From Solirubrobacterales bacterium (GTDB lineage: Bacteria; Actinomycetota; Thermoleophilia; Solirubrobacterales; 70-9), in contig JAMLGI010000004.1 of NCBI GenBank assembly GCA_023958085.1, positions 1-64,000 of the forward strand: a stretch of DNA of 64,000 bases, read 5' to 3'. This document shows positions 279 to 59,937 of this stretch, in pieces (the stretch's first letter is position 1; every line of letters begins with the position of its first letter). The notes beneath the pieces are model-generated. The model saw only the letters and a list, made by a program, of their open reading frames with translations, did not search any database and was not told where the DNA came from. The position numbers and the translations under genes were made by a program.

Positions 279-1031
279 CTACTCGGAGTCGGGCTGGACG
301 GCGTTCGGGTGGTCCGGGACCGCGTCGGGTGCTACCGCGTTGGGATGATCCGGAACCGCGTCCGGGGCAACCGCGTTGGGGTGATCCGGGACCGCGTTGG
401 GATGGTCGTTGGCCGGAGCCTCTTCCCGTCTGCCCCTGCCCTTGGCCTTTTTCGCCTGGCGGGCTGCCTCGGCGTCCTTGGCGGCTTCCTTGGAGGGACC
501 AAGCAGCATGCTCATGTTGCGACCCTCCTGGAGCGGCTTCGACTCGATCGTCGCCAGCCCTTCCAGATCCTCGTAGAGCCGGTAGAGCAGGTCGCGTCCC
601 CGCTCGGGATGGGCCTGCTCGCGACCACGGAACATGATCGTGACCTTGACCTTGTCGCCGGCGGTCAGGAATCGGGTTACGTGACCCTTCTTGGTGTTGT
701 AGTCGTGGTCGGCGATCTTCGGGCGCAGCTTGATCTCGCGGATGTTGACCTGGGTCTGATGCTTGCGGGCTGCCTTCTGCTTCTGCTCCTGCTCGTACTT
801 GTATTTCGAGTAGTCGAGCAGGCGACAGACCGGCGGCTTGGCCCGGGCGGCGACCTCGACCAGGTCGAGTTCGGCCTCACGGGCCATGCGACGGGCATCG
901 TCGGTGGCGACGATCCCGACCTGCTCACCGTCGGCACCGATCAGGCGCACCTTGGGCACGCGGATCCGCTCGTTTATGCGAGTGGTGTCCCGGTCGGGGG
1001 GACGGCGATCAAACCGGCGCGGAATCGGCAC
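279..1031 (-). CDS. infC: Translation initiation factor IF-3 with repetitive C-terminal tail
   Basis: IF-3 binds the 30S subunit, keeps it apart from 50S and proofreads initiator tRNA and start codon. The N domain starts at about residue 18 ([16 protein letters not shown]), followed by the usual linker ([14 protein letters not shown]) and the C domain ([12 protein letters not shown] to [11 protein letters not shown]). At 250 aa it is longer than the usual 170-200. The extra part is a basic linker followed by about 3.5 copies of a 12-residue [12 protein letters not shown] repeat. The start used is GTG at 1031; an ATT codon lies two codons inside, which is notable because infC often uses rare starts. 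It lies 95 nt downstream of thrS on the same strand. The usual rpmI-rplT partners do not follow. Confidence 0.95.
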
Positions 1032-21125: not shown

Positions 21126-22502
21126 TCAGCGTCGCTTGATCCGGGGCCGGGGTGCCTTTGGCGCCTTCCCGGCCTGGATCCGGGCAAGCTGCTGCGGGTC
21201 CGGCATCTGCCCCTTGGCCATCTGCTTCATCAGGCGGCGCATCTGGTCGAACTGCTTGACCAGGTTGTTGACCTGCTGGATTTTCGTCCCCGAGCCCTCG
21301 GCGATCCGACGTCGGCGCGATCCCTTGATCAGCTCCGGCGTCATCCGTTCCCGCGGGGTCATCGAGAGGATGATCGCCTCGACCCGGTCGAGCTCTCCCT
21401 CGTCCACATCGACATCCTTGAGCTGCTTCATCGCACCCATACCGGGCATCATCCCGAGCAGGTTGCCGAGCGGGCCCATCTTCCTCACCTGGCGCATCTG
21501 CTTGAGGAAGTCCTCCAGAGTGAACTGGTTGGAGGCCATCTTGCGCTGCAGCTCCTCGGCCTCTTCCTCGGAGACCTGGGCCTCGGCCTTCTCGATCAGG
21601 CTGAGGACATCGCCCATGCCGAGGATCCGGGAGGACATCCGGTCCGGATGGAAGCGTTCAAAATCGCCGAGCTTCTCGCCGGTCGAGGCGAAGATGACCG
21701 GCTTGCCGGTGACCGCCTTGACCGAGAGAGCCGCGCCACCGCGGGCGTCACCGTCCAGTTTGGAGATGATCACCCCGTCGAACTCGGCCGCCTCCCGGAA
21801 GGACTCGGCCACCCCGACCGCGTCCTGGCCGGTCATCGCGTCGACCACGAGCAGCACGTTGTGCGGCTTGACCTTCTTGCGGATCTTCGCCAGCTCGTCC
21901 ATCAACTCGCTGTCGATGTGGAGGCGGCCGGCAGTGTCGACGATCAGCACGTCGCGGTTTTCCTCGCGGGCCTTGTCCAGGGCCCAGGCGGCGATCTCGA
22001 CCGGGTCGGCCCCGGTGCCCTGCTGGTAGACCACGGCCCCGGCCCGGCGGCCGACCGTTTCCAGCTGCTCGATCGCGGCCGGCCGGTACACGTCACAGGC
22101 CGCCAACGCGACCCGCTTGCCCTCGTCGGTGAGCAGTTTCGCCAGCTTCGCGGTGGCGGTGGTCTTGCCGGATCCCTGCAGGCCGGCCATCAGGATGACG
22201 GTCGGTCCCTTGCTTGAGAAGACCAGGTCGCGACCGGCCCCGCCCATCAGCTCGGTCAACTCCTCGTTGACGATCTTCACGACCTGCTGACCCGGGTTGA
22301 GCGAACCGAGCACGTCGGCGCCGAGGCAACGCTCCTTGACCTTCGCGGTGAAGGACTTGACCACCTTGAAGTTCACGTCCGCTTCGAGCAGGGCGAGGCG
22401 GATCTCCCGCATCGCCTTGTCGACGTCGGCCTCGGTCAGCTTCCCCCGGTTGCGGACATCCGAAAGCGTCGCCTGAAGCCGGTCTGAAAGCTGGTCAAAC
22501 AT
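21126..22502 (-). CDS. ffh: Signal recognition particle protein Ffh
   Basis: 458 aa. The N domain (1-~90) and G domain carry [18 protein letters not shown] (G1), [20 protein letters not shown] and [14 protein letters not shown]; the Met-rich M domain (~330-440) binds 4.5S RNA and signal sequences. It targets nascent membrane proteins to SecYEG with FtsY, encoded just upstream. ATG at 22502; TAGGGT sits 9 nt upstream. Confidence 0.97.
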
Positions 22503-22599: not shown

Positions 22600-23610
22600 C
22601 TACTCCTCATCCAGCAGGGCTCTGGCGAAGTCTTCCGGGTCGAACGGGCGGAGGTCCTCGATCTTCTCGCCGGTCCCGATCAGTTTGACCGGGATGCCGA
22701 GCTCGTCGGCGATCGCGAGGGTGATCCCGCCCTTGGCGGTGCCGTCCAGCTTGGTCAGGACCACGCCGTCCACATCGGTGGCTTCGGCGAAGGCCTTGGC
22801 CTGGCGCAGACCGTTCTGGCCGGTGGTCGCGTCGATCGAGATCAGGACCTCGTGGGGGGCGCCCGGGATCTGCTTCTCGATCACCCGGCGGACCTTGCCC
22901 AGTTCCTCCATCAGGTTGGTCTGGGTGTGGAGCCGGCCGGCGGTGTCGATGATCACCACGTCGCAGCCGCGGGCCCGGGCGGCGTCGATCGCGTCGTAGG
23001 CGACCGAGCCGGGGTCGGCACCCTCGTTCGAGCGGACCAGTTCGGCGCCGGAGCGTTCCGCCCAGGTGGTCAGCTGCTCGGCCGCGGCAGCCCGGTAGGT
23101 GTCGGCCGCGCCGAGCAGCACCGAGAGCCCGAACTCGTTTTTCAGATGCCAGGCGATCTTGCCGATCGAGGTGGTCTTGCCGGTGCCGTTCACCCCGGTC
23201 ATCAGCAGCACGGCCGGTTCAGGGGAGAGATCGATCGGCCGACGGTTGGTCGAGGCGATCTCGGCGAGGATCCCGATCAGCCGCTCCCGGACCGCCGCTC
23301 CGTCCGGGGCGACCGTCCCGGCGTCAACCTCGTGCTCGAGCCGTTCGACCACCTTGGCGGTCGTGCTCGCCCCGGCATCGGCCAGGATCAACGCCTCCTC
23401 GAGCCGCTCCCAGGTCTCCTCGTCGATCCGGTCGAACAGGGTCGAGCCGATCTCCTCGGACAGGGCCCGGCGGCTCTTGGCGAGGCTCTCCCTGAGGCGG
23501 CGGAAGGCACCGCGTTTCTTCGGGGTGTCCGACTCCGGTTCGGCGGCAACGGCAGCTGCCGGGATCGCACGGTCGCCGAGATCGAGGATGTCGTTCCAGG
23601 TGGTTGACAT
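22600..23610 (-). CDS. ftsY: Signal recognition particle receptor FtsY
   Basis: 336 aa. A short acidic/basic N-terminal region is followed by the NG domain: MTGVNGTGKTTSIGKIAWHL (G1), GAADTYRAAAAEQL, IIDTAGRLHTQ, TKLDGTAKGG, and the C-terminal IGTGEKIEDLRPFDPEDFA. It is the SRP receptor partner of Ffh. The ATG at 23610 starts MSTTWNDILDLG; the longer open frame runs into the smc stop and is unlikely. The short A domain is typical of actinobacteria. Confidence 0.96.
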   Translation of the reverse strand: MSTTWNDILDLGDRAIPAAAVAAEPESDTPKKRGAFRRLRESLAKSRRALSEEIGSTLFDRIDEETWERLEEALILADAGASTTAKVVERLEHEVDAGTVAPDGAAVRERLIGILAEIASTNRRPIDLSPEPAVLLMTGVNGTGKTTSIGKIAWHLKNEFGLSVLLGAADTYRAAAAEQLTTWAERSGAELVRSNEGADPGSVAYDAIDAARARGCDVVIIDTAGRLHTQTNLMEELGKVRRVIEKQIPGAPHEVLISIDATTGQNGLRQAKAFAEATDVDGVVLTKLDGTAKGGITLAIADELGIPVKLIGTGEKIEDLRPFDPEDFARALLDEE

Positions 23611-23618
23611 GGCCGCGA

Positions 23619-23624
23619 AGCCTA
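23619..23624 (-). promoter_or_regulatory. Putative -10 box of ftsY
   Basis: TAGGCT 8 nt before the ftsY ATG, within the 19-nt gap after smc. Confidence 0.3.
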
Positions 23625-23629
23625 ATTCT

Positions 23630-25990
23630 TCAGGCGACTTCTTCGAGCACCGGGTTGCGTTCACCGTCGACCGGAGGGAGTCGACGGGAAACGACCCTGG
23701 TCACACCGTCACCACCCATGCTCACCCCGTAGAGCACGTCGGCGGCGTCCATGGTCAGCTTCTGGTGGGTCACGATCACGAACTGGGTCTGACCGGAGTA
23801 GAGCCGGACCAGTTCGAGGAAGCGGTTGATGTTGGTGTCGTCCAGGGCTGCCTCGACCTCGTCCAGAATGTAGAACGGGCAGGGACGGGCGAGGAAGACC
23901 GCAAAAACGAAGGCGAGCGCGGTCATCGCCTTCTCACCGCCGGAAAGCAGGCTCATCTTGCGCATCCGCTTGCCCTTCGGGTTGACCTCGAGTTCCACCC
24001 CGAAATCAACCGGGGATGGCGGCCCGGGCTCCGTTTCCTCCGTACCGTCGCTCTCGGCTGAGTCCGCAGACTCCTCCGGAGAGTCGGGGGTCTGATCGAC
24101 CGGGTCGGGGACCGGGCGCAGGTCAACCGAACGCAGTCGGCCGGAACCGCCGGGAAAGAGCCGGGCGATCATCTCCTCGAAGTTGGTGGCGGTCGCGGCG
24201 AAGGTTTCGTCAAAGGAACGCTTGATCTCGGCATCGATGTCCCGGATGACCCCTTCCAGTTCCCGCATCCCGCGTTCCGCGTCCTCCCGCTGCGCGACCA
24301 GCTGTTCGACGTGATCCACCGCCTCCTCGTACTCCTTGGCGGCGAGGGGGTTCACCGGGCCGATCCGTTCCCGACGCATCCGCAGATTGTGAAGCCGACG
24401 CTCGATCCCGGCCCGTTCCTCGTCGCCGAGCGGCTCCTCGGCAGTCGGGATCTCCTCACCCAGGGTTTCAGCGATCCGGCCAAGCTCGGCCGCCGCCTCG
24501 GAGCGTCGGTCGCCGAGGTGGGCCGCCTCGACCTCGGCCCGGGTGACCTCCTCGGCGATCGCGCGGGACTCGGTCTGGATCTCGGCCTCGAGCGCCGAGC
24601 ATCGCTTGAGCTCGGCCGCGATCTCGTCGCCGCCGCCCGGCCCACCGATCACTTCGCGTTCGGCCCGGGACACCCGCTCCCGGACCGCTTCACCGGCTCC
24701 GTCCGCTACCTGCGCGACCGCGGCCACCGCGGCAGCGAGCTGTTCGGCCGCCGCCAGTTTCGCGCGCAGTCGCTCGCGTTGATGCTCGCCCAGCAGACCC
24801 TCCGCCCGCCGGGCGTGCCGGGTTGCCCGTTCGGCCCCGGCGTGAACCTCGGCCAGGGCGGCCAGCCGCTCGGCTTCGGATCCTTCGGCGCGGGCCACCC
24901 GCAGGCCCTCCGAGGCGCCTTCGAGTCCGGAGCGGACCTCGTCCAGTTCGACGGCGAGCCTTCTGGACCGGTCACTTGAGGATCCGGCCTCGGCGATGTC
25001 GAGGGTGAGTGGCGCCAGCTCCAGCCGAAGCTCCTCCAGGCGGACTTCGAGTCGACCGGACCGTTCCGCCAGTGTGTTTGAACCGAGGGTGATCTTCTCC
25101 TGGCCGGACCGCAGCGAGTTGAGTCGGCCCCAGGCCTCGGTCCGCACCCGGTCGCGCTCGGCGAACTGCTCCTCGGCGGCGCTTCGCCGTTTCGAGACTT
25201 CGGACAGACGCCGTTCGAGCCGGTCACGCTTCTGGCGGGCCTCTTCGGCACGCTTCCGGGCCGCTTCGAGGCGGGATTCACCGAAACGCAGCTCTTCCGC
25301 GACCAGTTTCGACTTGAGCCCCAGTTCCTCCCGTTCGATCCGGGCCCCGATCTCGGCCGCGTTGGCCTGCTGTTTCAGCGGCCGGAGCTGACGGCGGGCC
25401 TCCCGCTCGACATCGAGCGCCCGGTCGAGGTTCTCCCGGGTCGTCATCAGTTTCAGTTCGGCCCGTCGGCGACGCTTGCGGAACTTGCCGAGCCCGGCTG
25501 CCTCCTCGATCAGCAGCCGCCGCTCACGGGGCTTCGAATGAACCACCGAGTCGACCCGGCCCTGGCTGATCACGGAGTGCATCTGACGCCCGAGATTGGC
25601 GTCCGAGAGCAGCTCCTGGATGTCGGTGAGCCGACAGCGCGCACCGTTCAGGCGGTACTCGCCTTCACCGTTGCGGTCCAGCTTCCGGGTGATCGCGATC
25701 TCGGTGAACTCGTCTCCGAGCCGACCCTCGGAGTTGTCGATCACCACCTCCACTTCGGCCTCGGAGCGCGCCCCGACCTTGCTGCCTCCGACCGAGATCA
25801 CGTCCTGCATCGAGGAGCCGCGGATCGCCCCCGGGCTCTGCTCGCCGAGCGCCCAGAGGACCGCGTCGGTGATGTTCGACTTGCCGGATCCGTTCGGGCC
25901 GACCACGACACTCACCCCGGGGGCGAAATCGAGGACGGTCTTCTCGGGGAAGGACTTGAAACCCCTCATCGTCACGGAACGGAGATACAT
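23630..25990 (-). CDS. smc: Short SMC-family chromosome protein lacking an evident hinge
   Basis: About 786 aa, compared with ~1,150-1,200 for bacterial SMC. The N-terminal head is complete: MYLRSVTMRGFKSF, Walker A VVVGPNGSGKSNITDAVLWALGEQ, and VISQGRVDSVV. The C-terminal head has the signature LLSGGEKAMTALAFVFA and Walker B FYILDEVEAALDD. The ~400 residues between heads are Arg/Glu/Ala-rich coiled coil; no globular hinge with its usual glycine motifs is seen, only a GGPGGG near residue 455. A ~35-residue acidic Pro/Ser/Glu insert precedes the signature motif. The ATG at 25990 gives the canonical SMC start. It lies between rnc and ftsY, the standard smc locus. Confidence 0.9.
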   Translation of the reverse strand: MYLRSVTMRGFKSFPEKTVLDFAPGVSVVVGPNGSGKSNITDAVLWALGEQSPGAIRGSSMQDVISVGGSKVGARSEAEVEVVIDNSEGRLGDEFTEIAITRKLDRNGEGEYRLNGARCRLTDIQELLSDANLGRQMHSVISQGRVDSVVHSKPRERRLLIEEAAGLGKFRKRRRRAELKLMTTRENLDRALDVEREARRQLRPLKQQANAAEIGARIEREELGLKSKLVAEELRFGESRLEAARKRAEEARQKRDRLERRLSEVSKRRSAAEEQFAERDRVRTEAWGRLNSLRSGQEKITLGSNTLAERSGRLEVRLEELRLELAPLTLDIAEAGSSSDRSRRLAVELDEVRSGLEGASEGLRVARAEGSEAERLAALAEVHAGAERATRHARRAEGLLGEHQRERLRAKLAAAEQLAAAVAAVAQVADGAGEAVRERVSRAEREVIGGPGGGDEIAAELKRCSALEAEIQTESRAIAEEVTRAEVEAAHLGDRRSEAAAELGRIAETLGEEIPTAEEPLGDEERAGIERRLHNLRMRRERIGPVNPLAAKEYEEAVDHVEQLVAQREDAERGMRELEGVIRDIDAEIKRSFDETFAATATNFEEMIARLFPGGSGRLRSVDLRPVPDPVDQTPDSPEESADSAESDGTEETEPGPPSPVDFGVELEVNPKGKRMRKMSLLSGGEKAMTALAFVFAVFLARPCPFYILDEVEAALDDTNINRFLELVRLYSGQTQFVIVTHQKLTMDAADVLYGVSMGGDGVTRVVSRRLPPVDGERNPVLEEVA

Positions 25991-26112
25991 ATGCACCAAA
26001 GAGTGCCGGGTCCACCGGACGGACGCGGTCCGGATCCCGGGTCAACCGATCCGTCGCTCCGCAATTTGCGGGAATCGGATTTCCCGCCGTTCGGAAATGT
26101 CGCTCGGGAACC

Positions 26113-26847
26113 TCAGACGTGAGGGTCGCGGCCGGCCATCGCGTCGGCCGCCGCCGCCTGGCCGGCGGCCTTCTTCGAGCGCCCCTCTCCCGTTCCGGCC
26201 GGAGCGTCGCCGACCAGGACGGTGACCGTGTAGACCCGATCGTGGGCCGGGCCCGAGGCCGAGTCAACCCGGTAGCTCACCTCCATGCCCTCACAAGCCG
26301 CCAGCTCCTGGAGGGCGGACTTGAAATCGGCCCGCTGGTGCCGGGCGCGTTCGATCTCCTCCCGGAAAGCGGCGACCACCGCGGCGGAAGTCCGGACGAA
26401 CCCGAACTCCAGGTAGCAGGCGCCGATCATCGCTTCGGTCATCTCCGGCAAGGGACGTGACCCCTCCAGCAGCAGCCTTGCCGGGGTGCGGTTGCCGTCA
26501 CCGGTGTCCGGTTCGACCGCCAGCAGCAGTTCCGGGATCCCGATCGCCCGGCCGACGGTCGCGCAGGAGGTTCCGCTCACGGTCTGGTTGAGGATCTTGG
26601 TCAGGTTGCCGGCGTGCTCGCCGGGAAGCGACCGGTAGAGCTCGTCCGCGATCGCGAGCCCCAGCACCGAGTCGCCGAGCAGGGCGAGACGCTCGTAGGA
26701 ACCGATCCGGTCGCCGGACCAGGAGGTATGGGTGAGCGCTGCGCGTCGGGACGACTCGGGCAGTTCGCCGATCAGAGCCCGGAGTTCAGCGGTGCCACCG
26801 GCGCCGCTGCGCCGCTCACGAACCCGTCTTAGCCAGGACAAAGTCAA
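26113..26847 (-). CDS. rnc: Ribonuclease III with altered catalytic positions
   Basis: 244 aa: an RNase III domain (~20-165), then a dsRNA-binding domain (DFKSALQELAACEGMEVSY, GEGRSKKAAGQAAAADAM). RNase III cuts double-stranded RNA in rRNA and mRNA processing. The signature reads ERLALLGDS instead of ERLEFLGDS, the EGxLS segment reads AGNLT, and the D-x-x-E segment reads EMTE. By alignment to E. coli, E38, D45 and E117 are kept, E41 and E65 are Ala, and D114 is Glu. The start is TTG 26847 or 26841, overlapping acpP by about 30 nt. Position upstream of smc is standard. Confidence 0.88.
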   Translation of the reverse strand: MTLSWLRRVRERRSGAGGTAELRALIGELPESSRRAALTHTSWSGDRIGSYERLALLGDSVLGLAIADELYRSLPGEHAGNLTKILNQTVSGTSCATVGRAIGIPELLLAVEPDTGDGNRTPARLLLEGSRPLPEMTEAMIGACYLEFGFVRTSAAVVAAFREEIERARHQRADFKSALQELAACEGMEVSYRVDSASGPAHDRVYTVTVLVGDAPAGTGEGRSKKAAGQAAAADAMAGRDPHV

Positions 26848-27122: not shown

Positions 27123-28775
27123 TCACCCGGCCGGGCCCGGAGCTGCGTCCTCGGCGCGATGCCACTCCTCTACGTACTCCTCCCCGACCCGGCGGATCGC
27201 CTCGCCGATCGTGCGGTAGTCGGCTTCGTCGAGGTTGGCCAGCGACAGCCGGATCGACCAGGGTGGCCCGTCGAAACCGGAACCGTTGAGCGCGACGACC
27301 TCGCTCTGGGCCGCCAGCCGGAAGAGAATGTCCGCCGGTTCGTACTGTCGTTCGAGGAAGGCGGCGAACTCCGGTGGATAGCGGCGCTGCACGTGAAGCA
27401 TGAAGTCAAACTCGAGGTAGTAGCCGACGCGCAGCGGATCCTCCGGCAGGGTGATGCGCAGGCCGCCGAGCAGGGCTTCGAGCCGGTCGGCGATCAGCTT
27501 CATCGCCGCCTTGCGGTAGGCCCGCTCCTCGTCCAGCAGGTCGAACAGCGCGAACAGGGCCAGCTGGATCTGCTGCGGCTGGGAGAGTCCGGCGGTGTGG
27601 GTGAGGGCGACATCCCGCGAGTCGGCCACGAGACGCTCGGCGAAGGTGAGGCCAGGCACATCCTCGGTCAGCGACCTGTAGCGCTTCTCGAGCCGCTGTT
27701 TCGCCTGCTGCGGCAAGTCCGCCAGGGCCCGGTCAAGGACTGTGTTTCGCGAGGTGGCGATCAGTCCCTGCCGCCATCCGGTTGCACCGAAATACTTCGA
27801 CAGCGAGTAGACCAGAATCGTGTTGTCCGGAACCACCGCCGACAGGGAGCGGAACCCGTCGATGAAGGTGGCGTACACATCGTCGGTGATGATGATCAGC
27901 CCGGGGTTGTCGGTACGAACGATCTCGGCGATCCGAACGATGGTTTCGTCCTTGATCCGGACCGATGGCGGGTTGGTCGGGTTCACACAGATCAGCATCT
28001 TCACGGCAGGGTCACGGAGCCGTTCGAGCTCTTCCGGAGTGAACTGCCAGGAGTGCGATCCGTCCGGGAAGGTCCCGTTCGCCTCGATCAGCAACTGCTT
28101 CAGCGAGTACTCCGGGAGCGCCGCTATCTCGAGATACGGGGTGAAGACCGGCGTCATGATCGCGACGGTGTCCCCGGGCGACAGCAGCTCGTTGGCGAAC
28201 AGCGTGTCGAAGATGTAACACATCGCGGCGGTGCCGCCTTCGGTCGCGAAGACATCGATCTCGTCCGGGTCGGGGAACCCCTCGCCCATGATCGATGCCA
28301 GGTAGCGGGCGGCGATTTTCGCACAGTGCGAGAGCATCGCGGGCGGGTCCATGTAGTGGGCGCCGAGGACCCCGTCGACCAGCTCGTGGACAAAGTCGTC
28401 CGGATCCCAGCCCTGCCCGGCAGCCCAGTCCGTCACCGATCCGAGCAGGGCGATTCCCGGTTCGCCCGGCCTCGCGGCGAGCCACGTTTCGAACCGCCGG
28501 GCGATCTCGTGCTTCGCCGGCTGCGCCACGAGATCGCTGCCCCAGGATCCCGCGGCGCGGGCTTCGGCGACCGCGAACAGGCCGAGCTGGAAGAAGGCTT
28601 CACGGGGTGCTGCGGCGAGGAAGTTGGGGGTTCCCCGCCCGGCTTTGAGCAGCGGGCGTGCGGTGCGGCGCTGCTCCTCGGTCCCCAGCGAGATCAGAGT
28701 CTCCCGCAGCTCGAAAGGGGACAGTCTCTCGAGTTCCCGGATCCGGCTGCGACCCGGAATCGCCGGCGTGTCGCT
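27123..28775 (-). CDS. asdA: Aspartate 4-decarboxylase (bifunctional aspartate aminotransferase type)
   Basis: About 550 aa fold-type I PLP enzyme. The start LSPFELRETLI, LLKAGRGTPNFLAAAPREAFFQLGLFA and DGVLGAHYMDPPAML match L-aspartate beta-decarboxylases, which make alanine and CO2 from aspartate and retain transaminase activity. PLP-site landmarks are CVNPTNPP, ITDDVYATF and the Schiff-base Lys in VYSLSKYFGATGWRQG. GTG 28775 starts close to the homologous region; GTG 28826 would add a Cys-rich stretch that looks spurious. It sits between plsX and acpP, where fab genes are often found. A different subgroup of large class I aminotransferases is possible. Confidence 0.85.
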   Translation of the reverse strand, partial: SDTPAIPGRSRIRELERLSPFELRETLISLGTEEQRRTARPLLKAGRGTPNFLAAAPREAFFQLGLFAVAEARAAGSWGSDLVAQPAKHEIARRFETWLAARPGEPGIALLGSVTDWAAGQGWDPDDFVHELVDGVLGAHYMDPPAMLSHCAKIAARYLASIMGEGFPDPDEIDVFATEGGTAAMCYIFDTLFANELLSPGDTVAIMTPVFTPYLEIAALPEYSLKQLLIEANGTFPDGSHSWQFTPEELERLRDPAVKMLICVNPTNPPSVRIKDETIVRIAEIVRTDNPGLIIITDDVYATFIDGFRSLSAVVPDNTILVYSLSKYFGATGWRQGLIATSRNTVLDRALADLPQQAKQRLEKRYRSLTEDVPGLTFAERLVADSRDVALTHTAGLSQPQQIQLALFALFDLLDEERAYRKAAMKLIADRLEALLGGLRITLPEDPLRVGYYLEFDFMLHVQRRYPPEFAAFLERQYEPADILFRLAAQSEVVALNGSGFDGPPWSIRLSLANLDEADYRTIGEAIRRVGEEYVEEWHRAEDAAPGPAG

Positions 28776-28880
28776 CACCGCGAAATCACCACAGATCCCG
28801 CAGCCGGATGCGAAAAACCCGAGCACGTTGCCATAGCCCGATGCTACCGTGCCGGTCGGGGCGGCCCCGGCCGGTTCCGG

Positions 28881-55213: not shown

Positions 55214-58200
55214 CTACCCGGTCACCGGGGTGTGACGGACCCGGCGTGCCCTGACCGGCGGGCGCTTGACCCGCACGGTCCAGCGAGCCTCGAGGTTCCG
55301 GAGGGTGACCACGTTCCTCAGCCGCTCGCCGGCACCGGCATTGTCCGCAACCCTCGCCACGTAGTGGAACCTGGTCCACTTCTTCGAGCCCTCAAGCCGC
55401 GGAATGTTCCAGCAGAGAAGCCCGTCGGAGAACTTTCCGGTGCCGGGGTTGGTGACCGTCATGTGATCCGGGATCCGGTCACAGACGTCGAGATCGGTTG
55501 CCACCGAGTGCAGCTTGGTGTTCCGGACCAGGATCGTGTACCTGACCTTCTGACCCGGCAGCGCGACCCGCAGGTTTGCCTTCTTCCTCAGCTGGAGGTG
55601 CGGCTGGAAACAACCGGTCGTGGCGCTGTCACGGTCGCCGGGCGCGTTTTCGGCGGTTCCGGTGGCCACGTTCCTGATCGGCTCACAGACCGTGTTGTTC
55701 ATCCTGGCGTGGATCTTCACGGTCACCGATTCACCGGCGGCAAGGTCACCAATCTCGCAGTGGAGCCTGGGCCCGCCCTCGGCGCCGGCCCGCCGCACCT
55801 TGCCCGGCTTCCTTGCGCGGCTGGGGTTGGCACCCTGAATGTCGCAGTTGGCGCCCTTGGTCTCGGACCCGATCCGCCACGGACCGGCGAGGGTGCTGAG
55901 CGGATCATCGAGGACCACACCGCGGGCGGTGCCCGGACCCTGATTGCTCACCTTGATCGCGAACGACACGTCGTCACCGATCCCGGTACGCCCGCCATCG
56001 GTCTTGTTGACCACGATCTTCGGCTTCTGACACTCGACACTGGCGCTGTCGGCCGCATCCGGGGCGTTCCCGGACTTGGCGGTCGCGGTGTTGTCGTAGG
56101 TGGCACAGTTCTCGTAATCGGTCGGTGCCTTGATCGTCACCGGGACCTTTGCGCCCGCCACCAGATCACCGAATTCACAGGTGAGTTTGCCTTCCGACAG
56201 CTCACACGGGCTGCCATCAGGCTGCGACGAAATGGTCCAGGCGCCCGCCACCCCGCTCGGGACGGAATCGCTTAGGGTGACGTTCCTCGCGACGCCCGGA
56301 CCACCGTTGGCCACCTCAATGGTGAACACAACTTCGTCGCCGGCATTGACGGTACCGTTGCCGTTTTTCACGACCGTGAGATTCGGTCGTTCACACTCGA
56401 TGCTGGCCGAATCGGAGGCGTCGTGGGCGTTCTCGCCACTTGCCACCGCGGTGTTGTCCAGCTTCGAGCAATTTTCAAAGTTGGTCGGGGCGCTCACCGT
56501 CACCGAACGCGGTCCGTCTTCCTTGGTCAGATCCCCGAAGTTGCAGGTCAGGGTGTTGCCCACGATCTGGCAGGGAGGCTCTCCCTCGGACCCTGGCTGA
56601 TCGGTGATCGTCCAGGGGCCGGACACGCCACCGGTCGGCAGCGGATCCGAAAGGGTCACATCCTTGGCCGTACCGTCTCCGGTGTTCGACGTGACGATCG
56701 TGAAGACCGCGTCGTCACCGGCGTTGATCGTACCCTCAACCGCTGTCTTCAGGGTCGCCAGAGCGGGCTTCCTGCAGGTCACCATTGCCTCACCGGTTGC
56801 TTCCGGGGCGTTGGTGGCCTTCGCGGTCGCCTCGTTGTCGTACAGGGTGCAATTGTCCCGGTCGGTCGGAGCCTTGACCGTCACCGAGAAGGTTGCTTCG
56901 ACGCCGAGATCTCCGAGATTCGGGCATGAGAGGGTCTGCTGTTCGCCGGGATCCCCGACGATCGTGCAGGGTCCGTCCACCGGCGAGGTGATCACCCAGG
57001 ATCCGGACACCCCGGTCGGGAGTGGGTCAGTCAGGCTGACGCCCTTGGCGGTGCCGGGCCCGGAGTTCGAAACCTCGATCGTGAACTCGACATCCTCGCC
57101 GGCGTTGATCGTGTCGCTGGGAGTTGTCTTGAGTACGCTCAGGTTCGGCTTCTGGCAGTAGATCGTGGCATCGTCGGAGGCTTCCGGAGCGTTGGTCGAC
57201 TTGACGTGAGCCCAGTTGAGCAGCTCGGAGCAGTGATCGAAATCGGTCGGTGCGCTCACCGTCACCGACCGGGGACCATCCTGCTTGGTCAGATCCCCAA
57301 AGTCACACTTGAGGGTGTATCCGGTATTCGCGTCCCCGGTGATCTCGCAGGGGTCGCCCGCCGGTTGATCGGTGATCGTCCAGGGCCCGGACACGTCGGT
57401 GGGCAGCGGATCGTCCAGGGTCACACCCGTGGCCGTGCCGTCGCCCGTGTTCTCGGTTACGATCGTGAAGACGGCGTTATCGCCCGCATCGATCGTTCCG
57501 GTCACTGCGGTCTTCAACACACCCAGGTTGGGCGGCACGCAGGTGATCTTCCCGCCATCGGATGTTTCCGGGGCGTTCGTCGCGGAAGCCTTCGCCGCCG
57601 GATTGTCGTAGGTACCACACTTCTCAAACGTGGTGGTGGTCTTCACCTTCAACGTCGTGGTCTGACCCGCCCCCAAATTCGGAACACCGGTGCAGGTCAA
57701 CAAATTCGAACCATTCACCGAACACGTCCCACCACCCGTCGGCTGCTGCGAAACAGTCCACGGCGTGGCACCCGGCGCCGGCAACTGATCCGAAATCACC
57801 GGGTTCAGGGCTGTAACCGAACCCTCATTCTTCACCTGGATCGTGAACTCCGCATCACCACCAGGAGAAACCACACCCGCATCCGGCGTCTTCGTCACCT
57901 TCAGGGTGGTGTTCTGGGAGTTGGTGTAGGTGCAGTAGACGGAGTCACCCCGGTTCACCTGGAGACTGAAGTTCAGCCCGGTCTGGGTTCCGTTGACGAT
58001 CGTTCCGTTGTCGTAGTCACCGTTGCGGCAGACCACGCTGTCAAGGTTGAAGGTGCCCGCGGCCAGAGGCTGCCCGTTTGCGTTCTCGTTCACCTGAACG
58101 GTGGTCGGGGTCATCGGCAGCTTGGTGAAGAATGCTCCGGTCTGAACCACCGGAGGACTGCCGCTCGCATGGGTGGCGTTGTTGCCATCGAGGTAGGTGG

Positions 58201-59623
58201 GAGCGGGAGCACCAGGACGGGGGTCGACCGCGGTGTATTTCCAGTTTGGCTGGTTTGTTGCGTCGCCCTGGAGGCGCTTGCGGACGTACACCCGGGCGCC
58301 GCACTGTTTCGCCGCCAGTTCCCGCAGGAAGGACTTGAGCTGATCGAGACTCGGCACCGCGTAGTCGCCGTCAACGCCCTGGGTCGGACCGGAGACCGCC
58401 TTCAGGTTTGCCGCGGTCGGAGGGGTGCCGCCGGGGTTGGAAACCCCGATTGCGAGGATCCTGGAATTGAACCCGGCCCTCGCGCTGCGGGCCTTGATCG
58501 AGTTGGCCGAAGCCATGCCAGCGGTCAGATCGAACATCTGGGTTGAACCGCCGGTGCCGGGGACCACTGTCTGGTTCACGGTCGGGTTGCCATCGGTGAT
58601 GAACACGACCAGATCGGGCTTGTCGGTACGGCCGGCGGCGCCACCTTTGGGGTCAAATCCTGCGGCGATGGAGGCGTCTTTAAGCGCGATGTCCCAGTTC
58701 GTCCCCCCGGCCGGGTTGGCGTACACATCATCGATGGTGTCTTTCAATTGCTGGGAGGTGACCGGGTTGCCGGTTTCCAGGTCAACCGGGGCATGGTAGA
58801 AATCGCTGTCCCCCTGGCCTCCACCGGTGTACGAGTTGAGGGCGAAGTTTCCTTGATAGTTGCTGCTGAAGCTGGTGATGGCGATCTGGGTCGGCGTCCC
58901 GTCGAGCTGGGTTACGAACTCCTTGGCGGCTGCCGCGTATGCCGCCGGGTCACCGTCCTGTTCGATCGAACCGGAACGGTCGAGGACCAGCAGGATGTTG
59001 AGGCCGCAGACGTTCGGCAGGTCGCTGTTGTCACGAGCGTTGATGAACGGGGAGCCGTTGTTGGTCACGGACGGCCCCTGGCTCGGAGTCCAATCGTCAG
59101 GATCCTTGTCCGAGTTCGAGTGGGGGTAGGCGTAGGTGGTCTGGCCGTCCCGCACCTGTACCCGGGCAACGTACTGCTGCGGTGGACTCGAACCAAAGGA
59201 GAGTTCTTTTTGGGCTCCGAGGTCCCTGAATCCGAGGCCGGCGTCCTTCTCCCTCACGTAGTAGACCGTCCCGCTTCCGGAAGTGGCACCGGGAACCGAC
59301 GCGCTGGCCTGACCGTTGACCCCGGTCCGGCTCGGGAAGGCGGTCCAGACTGTGGCGAGAAGGGTCGGGTCCCCGGTTGTCCACTCGAAAAGGGCACCGT
59401 CGTTTGCGTTGGCCGATCCGACGGGGTCTGCATAGGTGGTCGCGCCGGAAACAGCGGTCGAGGCGCTCCTGTCACCCCCCTTGGTCGCGATGATGGTCCC
59501 GTTGGCGCTGGCAGAAGACACACCCCAGGCGCTGAAAGCGATCAGGAGCAGGGCAAGGGCCAGGATTCCCGTGGCCGGTCTGCCGAGAAGCCTTACCGGT
59601 TGATGCGATTCCGTCGAATTCAT
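55214..59623 (-). CDS. Large secreted VWA and DUF11-repeat surface protein
   Basis: 1,469 aa. Signal peptide (GILALALLLIAFSAWGVSSASA), a beta-rich N-terminal domain, then a von Willebrand A domain at about 207-390 with MIDAS DRSGS and a later VVFITDGNP. A prealbumin-like domain (RVYVRKRLQGD to VYCTYTN) leads into seven DUF11 repeats from about 568, roughly 125 aa each, most with four regularly placed Cys. The last repeat forms the C-terminal domain shared with the protein at 61839, ending in RRVRHTPVTG. No LPxTG sorting signal or C-terminal membrane helix. ATG 59623 has GGAGG 8 nt upstream. Probably an adhesin or wall-surface fibre. Confidence 0.88.
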   Translation of the reverse strand: MNSTESHQPVRLLGRPATGILALALLLIAFSAWGVSSASANGTIIATKGGDRSASTAVSGATTYADPVGSANANDGALFEWTTGDPTLLATVWTAFPSRTGVNGQASASVPGATSGSGTVYYVREKDAGLGFRDLGAQKELSFGSSPPQQYVARVQVRDGQTTYAYPHSNSDKDPDDWTPSQGPSVTNNGSPFINARDNSDLPNVCGLNILLVLDRSGSIEQDGDPAAYAAAAKEFVTQLDGTPTQIAITSFSSNYQGNFALNSYTGGGQGDSDFYHAPVDLETGNPVTSQQLKDTIDDVYANPAGGTNWDIALKDASIAAGFDPKGGAAGRTDKPDLVVFITDGNPTVNQTVVPGTGGSTQMFDLTAGMASANSIKARSARAGFNSRILAIGVSNPGGTPPTAANLKAVSGPTQGVDGDYAVPSLDQLKSFLRELAAKQCGARVYVRKRLQGDATNQPNWKYTAVDPRPGAPAPTYLDGNNATHASGSPPVVQTGAFFTKLPMTPTTVQVNENANGQPLAAGTFNLDSVVCRNGDYDNGTIVNGTQTGLNFSLQVNRGDSVYCTYTNSQNTTLKVTKTPDAGVVSPGGDAEFTIQVKNEGSVTALNPVISDQLPAPGATPWTVSQQPTGGGTCSVNGSNLLTCTGVPNLGAGQTTTLKVKTTTTFEKCGTYDNPAAKASATNAPETSDGGKITCVPPNLGVLKTAVTGTIDAGDNAVFTIVTENTGDGTATGVTLDDPLPTDVSGPWTITDQPAGDPCEITGDANTGYTLKCDFGDLTKQDGPRSVTVSAPTDFDHCSELLNWAHVKSTNAPEASDDATIYCQKPNLSVLKTTPSDTINAGEDVEFTIEVSNSGPGTAKGVSLTDPLPTGVSGSWVITSPVDGPCTIVGDPGEQQTLSCPNLGDLGVEATFSVTVKAPTDRDNCTLYDNEATAKATNAPEATGEAMVTCRKPALATLKTAVEGTINAGDDAVFTIVTSNTGDGTAKDVTLSDPLPTGGVSGPWTITDQPGSEGEPPCQIVGNTLTCNFGDLTKEDGPRSVTVSAPTNFENCSKLDNTAVASGENAHDASDSASIECERPNLTVVKNGNGTVNAGDEVVFTIEVANGGPGVARNVTLSDSVPSGVAGAWTISSQPDGSPCELSEGKLTCEFGDLVAGAKVPVTIKAPTDYENCATYDNTATAKSGNAPDAADSASVECQKPKIVVNKTDGGRTGIGDDVSFAIKVSNQGPGTARGVVLDDPLSTLAGPWRIGSETKGANCDIQGANPSRARKPGKVRRAGAEGGPRLHCEIGDLAAGESVTVKIHARMNNTVCEPIRNVATGTAENAPGDRDSATTGCFQPHLQLRKKANLRVALPGQKVRYTILVRNTKLHSVATDLDVCDRIPDHMTVTNPGTGKFSDGLLCWNIPRLEGSKKWTRFHYVARVADNAGAGERLRNVVTLRNLEARWTVRVKRPPVRARRVRHTPVTG
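57610..57905 (-). other. Segment of atypical codon use in the first DUF11 repeat
   Basis: Within the VWA-DUF11 gene the first DUF11 repeat uses mostly T- and G-ending codons (GGT, AAT, TTG, ACG, GTT, TCT, CCT), while the repeats on both sides prefer C-ending codons. It suggests a recently acquired or converted segment. Confidence 0.5.
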
Positions 59624-59937
59624 CGTTACTGCCTCCTTCGTCCGGCGTGGTGCCGGTCCGATCTGACCCGCCCGATTCCGAAGCGGGGGATCCGGTCCAG
59701 TCAACTCCCGACCGGGTCCGCAGCCATCAAAGGTGGAAGGAGTTCAGCCCACAAGCGATTTCTGCCCGGAGGAATAGGGATCGGCCGGCAATTACCACCT
59801 TGGAGGTACTTCTTTCGACCTAATTCACTCCCGAAAGCAACCTCGGCACCGAAACGGCCCGGATGCACAGACTCCGCGCCGGAGTCGGTCAAGCCCTGTG
59901 GCCGGTGCGCAGCAAGCCCCAAGCCGGGCGGGAATGC
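59624..59937. other. Intergenic region between LuxR gene and VWA-DUF11 gene
   Basis: 314 nt without a gene. The only structure seen is a short imperfect palindrome at 59793-59808 (TACCACC-TT-GGAGGTA) that could be an operator, and the GGAGG ribosome-binding site next to 59623. No match to a riboswitch class was recognised. Confidence 0.5.

What the first reader, a model, noticed from the sequence alone, without database searches (positions are those of the whole stretch)
23630..25990. SMC protein about 400 residues short with no recognisable hinge
Both ATPase halves and all motifs are intact and the locus is the canonical smc position, yet only ~400 residues lie between the heads instead of ~850. 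That stretch reads as coiled coil throughout; the only break is a GGPGGG near residue 455. A hinge is normally needed for SMC dimerisation. Either the hinge is extremely reduced, dimerisation is by another route, or this lineage has a minimal SMC more like short-armed Rad50/SbcC relatives.
Basis: partly seen in the sequence, partly recalled or inferred. Interest (0 to 1): 0.62.

Follow-up and report, generated by a model that had tools for sequence, protein, structure and literature searches.

The report
Chromosome-folding SMC motor without its hinge
A family of uncultured soil and freshwater bacteria uses a shortened version of the chromosome-organising SMC protein that has lost the hinge domain thought to join two SMC molecules, yet keeps the usual partner proteins, so it offers a natural test of what the hinge is for.

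Summary
The gene at 23630-25990(-) is the only smc found in a Solirubrobacterales genome (genus of bacterium 67-14). It has intact heads and passes the curated Smc cut-off. No hinge is found by Pfam, a class-specific hinge profile, profile-profile comparison or AlphaFold; the same pipeline recovers the hinge in a full-length relative of the same family. It is not an assembly fault: 24 of 37 family genomes carry an intact short smc, one on a single 3.4 Mb contig; 4 of 37 keep a hinge form. Relative to these the gene lost the hinge plus about 65 residues per arm. The GGPGGG is an old arm break, not the turn. ScpA, ScpB and ParB are retained. Hinge loss recurs: two further Thermoleophilia lineages keep different hinge remnants, and four more Actinomycetota families look hinge-less. 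Best reading: a natural core-only SMC in a ParB-SMC-ScpAB system, dimerised by apical helices and kleisin (inferred). Prior art: oceanic hinge-less SMC (PMC12153180), without partners or genome context.

The parts
23630..25990 (-). smc, hinge-less, 786 aa from ATG (789 from TTG at 25999)
25505..25990 (-). N-terminal half of ATPase head (P0001 residues 4-165), with Walker A 25877-25900
   Evidence: model
24890..25489 (-). N-terminal arm, residues 171-370, helix with a break at 333-340
   Evidence: AlphaFold model
24878..24889 (-). likely apical turn, residues 371-374, which stands where the hinge would be
   Evidence: helix break in model; variable loop in alignment
24755..24844 (-). conserved apex-proximal element, residues 386-415 (core RRxExLLG, residues 397-404), no cysteine
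24158..24877 (-). C-terminal arm, residues 375-614
   Evidence: AlphaFold model
24629..24646 (-). GGPGGG, residues 452-457: arm break also present in full-length relatives, not the hinge
23672..24157 (-). C-terminal half of ATPase head, residues 615-776, with signature 23930-23950 and Walker B 23858-23875
22600..23664 (-). ftsY (ORF as listed from GTG; overlaps the smc end, true start probably lower)
21126..22502 (-). ffh
26113..26847 (-). rnc (ribonuclease III), upstream of smc

Best explanation
This is the orthologous, sole chromosomal SMC of the lineage, from which the hinge and the distal part of both arms were lost, leaving a core-only SMC: ATPase head, joint and a short arm that turns back on itself near residues 371-374. 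It works with ScpA, ScpB and ParB as a condensin. Shown: hinge absent; loss inside a family that still has hinge forms; partner genes retained; inter-head length held within 382-386 residues across 19 species. Inferred: the two SMC molecules are held together at the tip by helix-helix contacts of the apical hairpin (residues about 341-415, including the conserved RRxExLLG element), much as RecN dimerises through apical helices, and at the heads by ATP and ScpA. It would still extrude DNA loops but could not use a hinge channel to bypass obstacles.
For: No hinge: Pfam; genome-wide search, 0 hits at E<=0.1 in G000; class-specific profile, -0.4 bits against 160-211 for hinge forms of the order; hhalign probability 0.2%; AlphaFold shows helix and breaks only between residues 146 and 614, while the control L172 shows eight hinge strands at 451-570. 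Real and selected: 24 of 37 family genomes intact and short; head columns 78% pairwise identical on average across 10 diverse members; inter-head length 382-386 in 19 of 19. Loss: hinge forms in 4 of 37 family genomes and in outgroups; trees. Partners: ScpA 58 of 61 and ScpB 58 of 61 genomes, 33 of 35 each in a set nearly all hinge-less, ParB 15 of 16. Apex under constraint: identity 0.61/0.53 at 386-415 between 0.33 and 0.24. Precedents: Smc with a Rad50 zinc hook supports normal growth (PMC5344682 section 12); JetC with elbow-to-hinge replaced by a linker still works if the dimer is closed (PMC12647877 section 10); RecN apical-helix dimer (PMC4255302 legend).
Against: No evidence of tip dimerisation: no dimer model could be run, and the apex region 378-411 ranks only 36th of 291 windows of the arm for conservation. 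The model's global arrangement is uncertain (pTM 0.49), so the turn at 371-374 rests on a helix break, loop variability and arm register. Co-occurrence of ScpAB does not prove binding.
Confidence: 0.55

Rival explanations
1. There is no tip-tip contact. Two short SMC monomers are joined only at the heads by ScpA, the ScpB dimer and ATP, giving an open clamp or bridge instead of a closed ring, so the complex grips or bridges DNA but may not entrap or extrude it like a canonical SMC.
For: ScpA and ScpB are retained. The neck stretch 171-215 is among the most conserved parts of the arm (0.81). Apex conservation is modest.
Against: JetC without a hinge loses activity when the tip crosslink is reduced (PMC12647877 section 10). 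A fixed inter-head length suggests that arm geometry matters.
Confidence: 0.3
2. Another protein supplies the hinge in trans, or bridges the tips.
For: Nothing direct; not every protein of the genome was examined.
Against: No SMC_hinge match in G000 at E<=0.1, 4 candidates scored.
Confidence: 0.05
3. The protein left chromosome organisation and became a repair ATPase of the Rad50/SbcC or RecN kind.
For: Short arms and no hinge resemble those families.
Against: Smc heads are the best structural matches (4i99, Z 29.5, rmsd 2.9, 304 aligned); TIGR02168 passes its cut-off and Rad50 models do not; smc locus and ScpA, ScpB, ParB kept; no cysteine at the apex.
Confidence: 0.05
4. Assembly or annotation artefact.
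For: Many of these genomes are metagenome bins, and in 7 of 37 family genomes smc is cut by contig ends.
Against: 24 of 37 intact short copies, including a one-contig 3.4 Mb genome (G020) and a 5-contig genome (G018).
Confidence: 0.01

Closest known systems
Bacterial Smc of Smc-ScpAB (TIGR02168)
   Same: Head halves, all ABC ATPase motifs, neck, GPVNP stretch, locus next to ftsY, partner genes scpA, scpB, parB
   Different: No hinge; distal arm missing; about 400 aa shorter than B. subtilis Smc
Hinge-less SMC of oceanic Actinobacteria (PMC12153180, 2025; passages read)
   Same: SMC heads, coiled coil, no hinge, no CXXC
   Different: That clade is known from ocean metagenome genes; the paper's main text has no mention of ScpA or kleisin. 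Here: genome-resolved Thermoleophilia, canonical locus, partners, hinge-bearing sisters, repeated loss. Whether the oceanic clade is related could not be tested
ecJET core (engineered Wadjet JetC without elbow-to-hinge segment; PMC12647877)
   Same: Core SMC with distal arm and hinge removed
   Different: Engineered and held by a disulfide; here natural and without cysteine at the apex
RecN (PMC4255302, passages)
   Same: Short arm, no hinge, helical apex
   Different: RecN acts in repair without known accessory proteins; this has Smc heads and ScpAB in the genome
Rad50/SbcC
   Same: SMC-like heads, no SMC hinge
   Different: Zinc hook CXXC absent; Rad50 family models far below cut-off

Membership tests
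Bacterial Smc (TIGR02168, SMC-ScpAB) | Curated whole-protein score cut-off | tested here: met
   626.9 bits against 567.35
Bacterial Smc (TIGR02168, SMC-ScpAB) | Both head halves with Walker A, signature, Walker B | tested here: met
Bacterial Smc (TIGR02168, SMC-ScpAB) | Hinge dimerisation domain (PF06470) | tested here: not met
   control. Hence filed as a hinge-less Smc orthologue, not a canonical Smc
Bacterial Smc (TIGR02168, SMC-ScpAB) | Kleisin ScpA and Kite ScpB encoded in the genome | tested here: met
   stop-to-stop frames of 254 and 227 codons read
Bacterial Smc (TIGR02168, SMC-ScpAB) | Forms an SMC dimer and binds ScpA | not testable with these tools
   needs protein
Rad50/SbcC | Zinc hook CXXC at the coiled-coil apex | tested here: not met
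   no cysteine in residues 341-370 and 375-411 in 10 of 10 members
Rad50/SbcC | Family score cut-off | tested here: not met
   NF003034 88.2 against 700; NF002572 77.4 against 1087
Archaea-specific SMC-related protein (ASRP, NF045487) | Family score cut-off | tested here: not met
   68.3 against 300
Oceanic hinge-less SMC clade (PMC12153180) | SMC heads, coil, no hinge, no CXXC | tested here: met
Oceanic hinge-less SMC clade (PMC12153180) | Branches within that clade | not testable with these tools
RecN-like apical dimer | Dimer interface in apical helices | not testable with these tools
   no dimer prediction on hand; monomer model only

The most novel reading that the evidence does not exclude
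The SMC hinge has been lost at least three times in Thermoleophilia and probably more often across Actinomycetota, each time with ScpA, ScpB and ParB kept, leaving shorter or equal arms and different new helical apices. Natural SMC-ScpAB condensins can therefore work as core-only motors, so the hinge toroid and its obstacle-bypass channel are dispensable to whole lineages, and alternative apical dimerisation modules have evolved repeatedly. This runs against the pattern proposed from channel-less hinges, that loss of the channel goes with longer arms.
Probability: 0.6. Interest if true: 0.85.

Novelty: new variant of a known kind. Interest (0 to 1): 0.72.

Why it matters
The hinge is treated as a defining SMC part. 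Recent work with Wadjet proposes that the hinge is not needed for loop extrusion and that its conserved role is to let DNA-bound obstacles past (PMC12647877). A cell lineage that has discarded hinge and distal arm but kept ScpAB and ParB is a natural experiment on exactly that question. The three losses in one class, each with hinge-bearing sisters, give paired species for comparison, and the short proteins should be convenient for structural work on a whole SMC complex.

Tried and rejected
Hinge in trans: no match in G000. The one sub-threshold match in the genus, G005 E=0.003 in a 533-codon frame, was taken as chance and not followed. Hinge divergent beyond Pfam: rejected for the window by a class-specific profile and hhalign; the class-specific profile was built from 17 hinge forms that are among those scoring highest, so the low scores are the informative part. 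GGPGGG as the tip: rejected because full-length relatives have the same break.

Missing PF06470 alone is not proof of hinge loss. Of the 87 PF06470-negative class genomes I searched 58; 52 had some match to the window's protein, and many of these are cut by contig ends, are matches to other ATPases only, or have weak hinges (for example G182 and G085). In the phylum survey f13, f34 and f41 rest on two sequences read each, f16 on ten. In the f7 lineage hmmsearch with an f7 hinge profile did not recover the vestige; only profile-profile comparison did (86.6%). In g36 the remnant at the C-terminal end of the hinge is weak (10.8 bits for one of four, 21%) and rests mainly on the alignment with hinge-bearing sisters. 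Trees are quick searches with SH-aLRT only; a single origin of the f1 loss is weakly supported (31%), and one search leaves two losses open. Fold search mostly reports heads; nothing can be said from it about the apex.

Papers: a search for Solirubrobacter with SMC protein and chromosome segregation found nothing; statements on what is in print rest in an open-licence library.

Full report
WHAT IS THERE. The frame at window 23630-25999 on the minus strand encodes 789 residues (786 from the ATG at 25990). Its neighbours are rnc on one side and ftsY and ffh on the other. Pfam finds one split SMC_N match over residues 5-766 and no SMC_hinge at E<=1. The NCBIfam equivalog model for bacterial Smc scores 626.9 bits against a cut-off of 567.35, while Rad50 and ASRP models stay far below theirs. 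The best structural matches of the model are Smc heads, some of them solved with ScpA (4i99 Z 29.5, rmsd 2.9, 304 aligned; 5xns; 5h68). It is the only SMC of this genome in a search with SMC_N; the other hits over the cut-off lie in frames of 378, 567 and 439 codons, which from their size I take to be RecF, RecN and a further ATPase (not tested).

NO HINGE. Search of the whole genome with PF06470 gave no match at E<=0.1. A hinge profile made from 17 hinge-bearing relatives of the order gives 160-211 bits to hinge forms of the order and at most 0.8 bits to all f1 short forms, -0.4 to the window's (the high scores are partly circular). Profile-profile comparison of the middle of the short forms with hinge profiles gives 0.2%. 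AlphaFold with 28 sequences (mean pLDDT 78.3, pTM 0.49) predicts only helices and breaks between residues 146 and 614. The same method on a hinge-bearing member of the same family (L172, 1058 residues given, 24 sequences, pLDDT 75.4, pTM 0.41) predicts the hinge as an alpha/beta domain with eight strands between 451 and 570.

NOT AN ARTEFACT. Of 37 genomes of the window's family examined, 24 carry one open frame spanning the short protein, including G020 (one contig, 3.4 Mb) and G018 (5 contigs). In 7 smc is cut by contig ends (G008 and G012 were read and are short). 4 have a hinge-bearing gene (G019, G024, G026, G033; PF06470 over cut-off in these 4 of 37). 2 (G015, G030) have no smc match of note. 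Among named genomes the nearest relatives are Solirubrobacterales, Thermoleophilia and Actinomycetota bins, a few of them soil or freshwater by name. Contig lengths tie G010 to Solirubrobacterales bacterium 67-14, so the window belongs to that genus (inference).

WHAT WAS REMOVED. Between two fixed landmarks (EEAAG after the N-head, NPLA before the C-head) hinge-less f1 proteins have 382-386 residues in 19 of 19, hinge-bearing f1 proteins 668-671 (3), other hinge-bearing Solirubrobacterales 672-693 (34). Taking 158 residues for the hinge, each arm is about 65 residues shorter. The full-length model has a distal helix pair of 78 and 79 residues (362-439 and 578-656) between arm breaks and the hinge; the f1 form ends about where that pair begins (alignment, inference). 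The most likely turn is 371-374: a helix break in the model and the variable loop of the alignment. Next to it lies a conserved element, residues 386-415, with R397 R398 E400 L402 L403 G404 invariant in 10 diverse members; mean pairwise identity there is 0.61/0.53 against 0.33 and 0.24 on either side, though the window 378-411 ranks only 36th of 291 windows of the arm. There is no cysteine in 341-370 or 375-411 in 10 of 10.

PARTNERS KEPT. ScpA and ScpB were each found in 58 of 61 relatives, 43 of 43 near-complete ones. In the window's genome they lie side by side on the same contig, about 52 kb away and beyond the window, and read as full-length frames. In a set of 35 genomes, 34 taken as hinge-less and G089 with a reduced hinge, ScpA is in 33 and ScpB in 33; the misses are G099 and G362 (ScpA), G455 and G362 (ScpB). 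ParB was found in 15 of 16 genomes tested, three of which (G019, G024, G026) have a hinge; the miss is G001.

IT HAPPENED MORE THAN ONCE. In the class, 213 of 300 genomes have PF06470 at E<=0.001. Searching 58 of the 87 others with the window's protein showed two more lineages. In genus g36 of another Solirubrobacterales family four species have Smc of 893-943 residues without hinge (G248 is cut at its C-terminal end by the contig), while eight species of the same genus have 1092-1158 residues and a hinge of 159-174 bits. The g36 forms keep only the C-terminal end of the hinge, which now reads as part of a helical apex (weak in profile terms), and arms of about the ancestral length (264 against 261). 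In family f7 five genomes have about 720 residues (four complete) and keep a vestige of the N-terminal half of the hinge (86.6%; missed by hmmsearch), while two sisters, G104 and G089, have reduced hinges. On a tree of heads only, the hinge label needs at least 7 changes over 92 rows, 5 forced by starred branches; in the class-only tree of 67 rows hinge presence needs 4 changes, and the hinge group as labelled there 3, all forced. In the phylum, 338 of 396 genomes have PF06470. Of the 44 without it outside the class (searched with two others), 33 belong to four families in which no sampled genome showed a hinge: f13 (12), f16 (16), f34 (2), f41 (3). The 10 f16 proteins read have 737-791 residues and no hinge in the three tested by Pfam or in the local profile search; f13, f34 and f41 rest on two sequences each.

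HOW IT MAY WORK. Established: a B. subtilis Smc with its hinge replaced by a Rad50 zinc hook supports normal growth (PMC5344682, section 12 read); a Wadjet JetC whose elbow-to-hinge segment was replaced by nine residues still cleaves plasmid DNA, read as extrusion, if its tips are crosslinked, and not when the crosslink is reduced (PMC12647877, section 10 read); RecN dimerises through three apical helices (PMC4255302, passages read). By analogy the f1 protein is a natural core SMC whose tips must be joined, most likely by the apical hairpin, with ScpA and ATP joining the heads. The rival that only heads and kleisin hold the complex is not excluded. The hinge channel proposed as gate for obstacle bypass cannot exist here. 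That paper notes that SMCs with channel-less hinges tend to have longer arms (section 13 read); here arms are shorter or equal, and ParB is kept, whose loading role the same paper describes as an avoidance route.

KNOWN AND NEW. Hinge-less SMC has been described from ocean metagenome genes assigned to Actinobacteria, with absence of CXXC (PMC12153180, passages read); its main text has no mention of ScpA or kleisin. New here: genome context, partners, hinge-bearing sisters, and repeated loss with different remnants. I found no other report in the searches listed; the library holds open-licence papers only.

Noticed in passing
G181 and G182 (family f11, g98), contigs C16 and C5: A second, small SMC-like frame of 638-651 codons beside a full-length Smc frame of about 1210; 31-40% identity in the C-head. 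Possibly a paralogue.
   Followed up: no
L314 (G465), residues about 525-605: Smc of 1118 residues with an apical globular-looking segment that matches no hinge model.
   Followed up: partly
L257 (G104) and L245 (G089): Hinges reduced in the middle, intermediate between a full hinge and the vestige of their f7 sisters.
   Followed up: partly
window 55214-59704 (-): 1496-residue protein with seven DUF11 stretches and a VWA domain, likely a surface protein.
   Followed up: no
window 27123-28826 (-): 567-residue class I/II aminotransferase between rnc and plsX, an unexpected guest in this conserved cluster.
   Followed up: no
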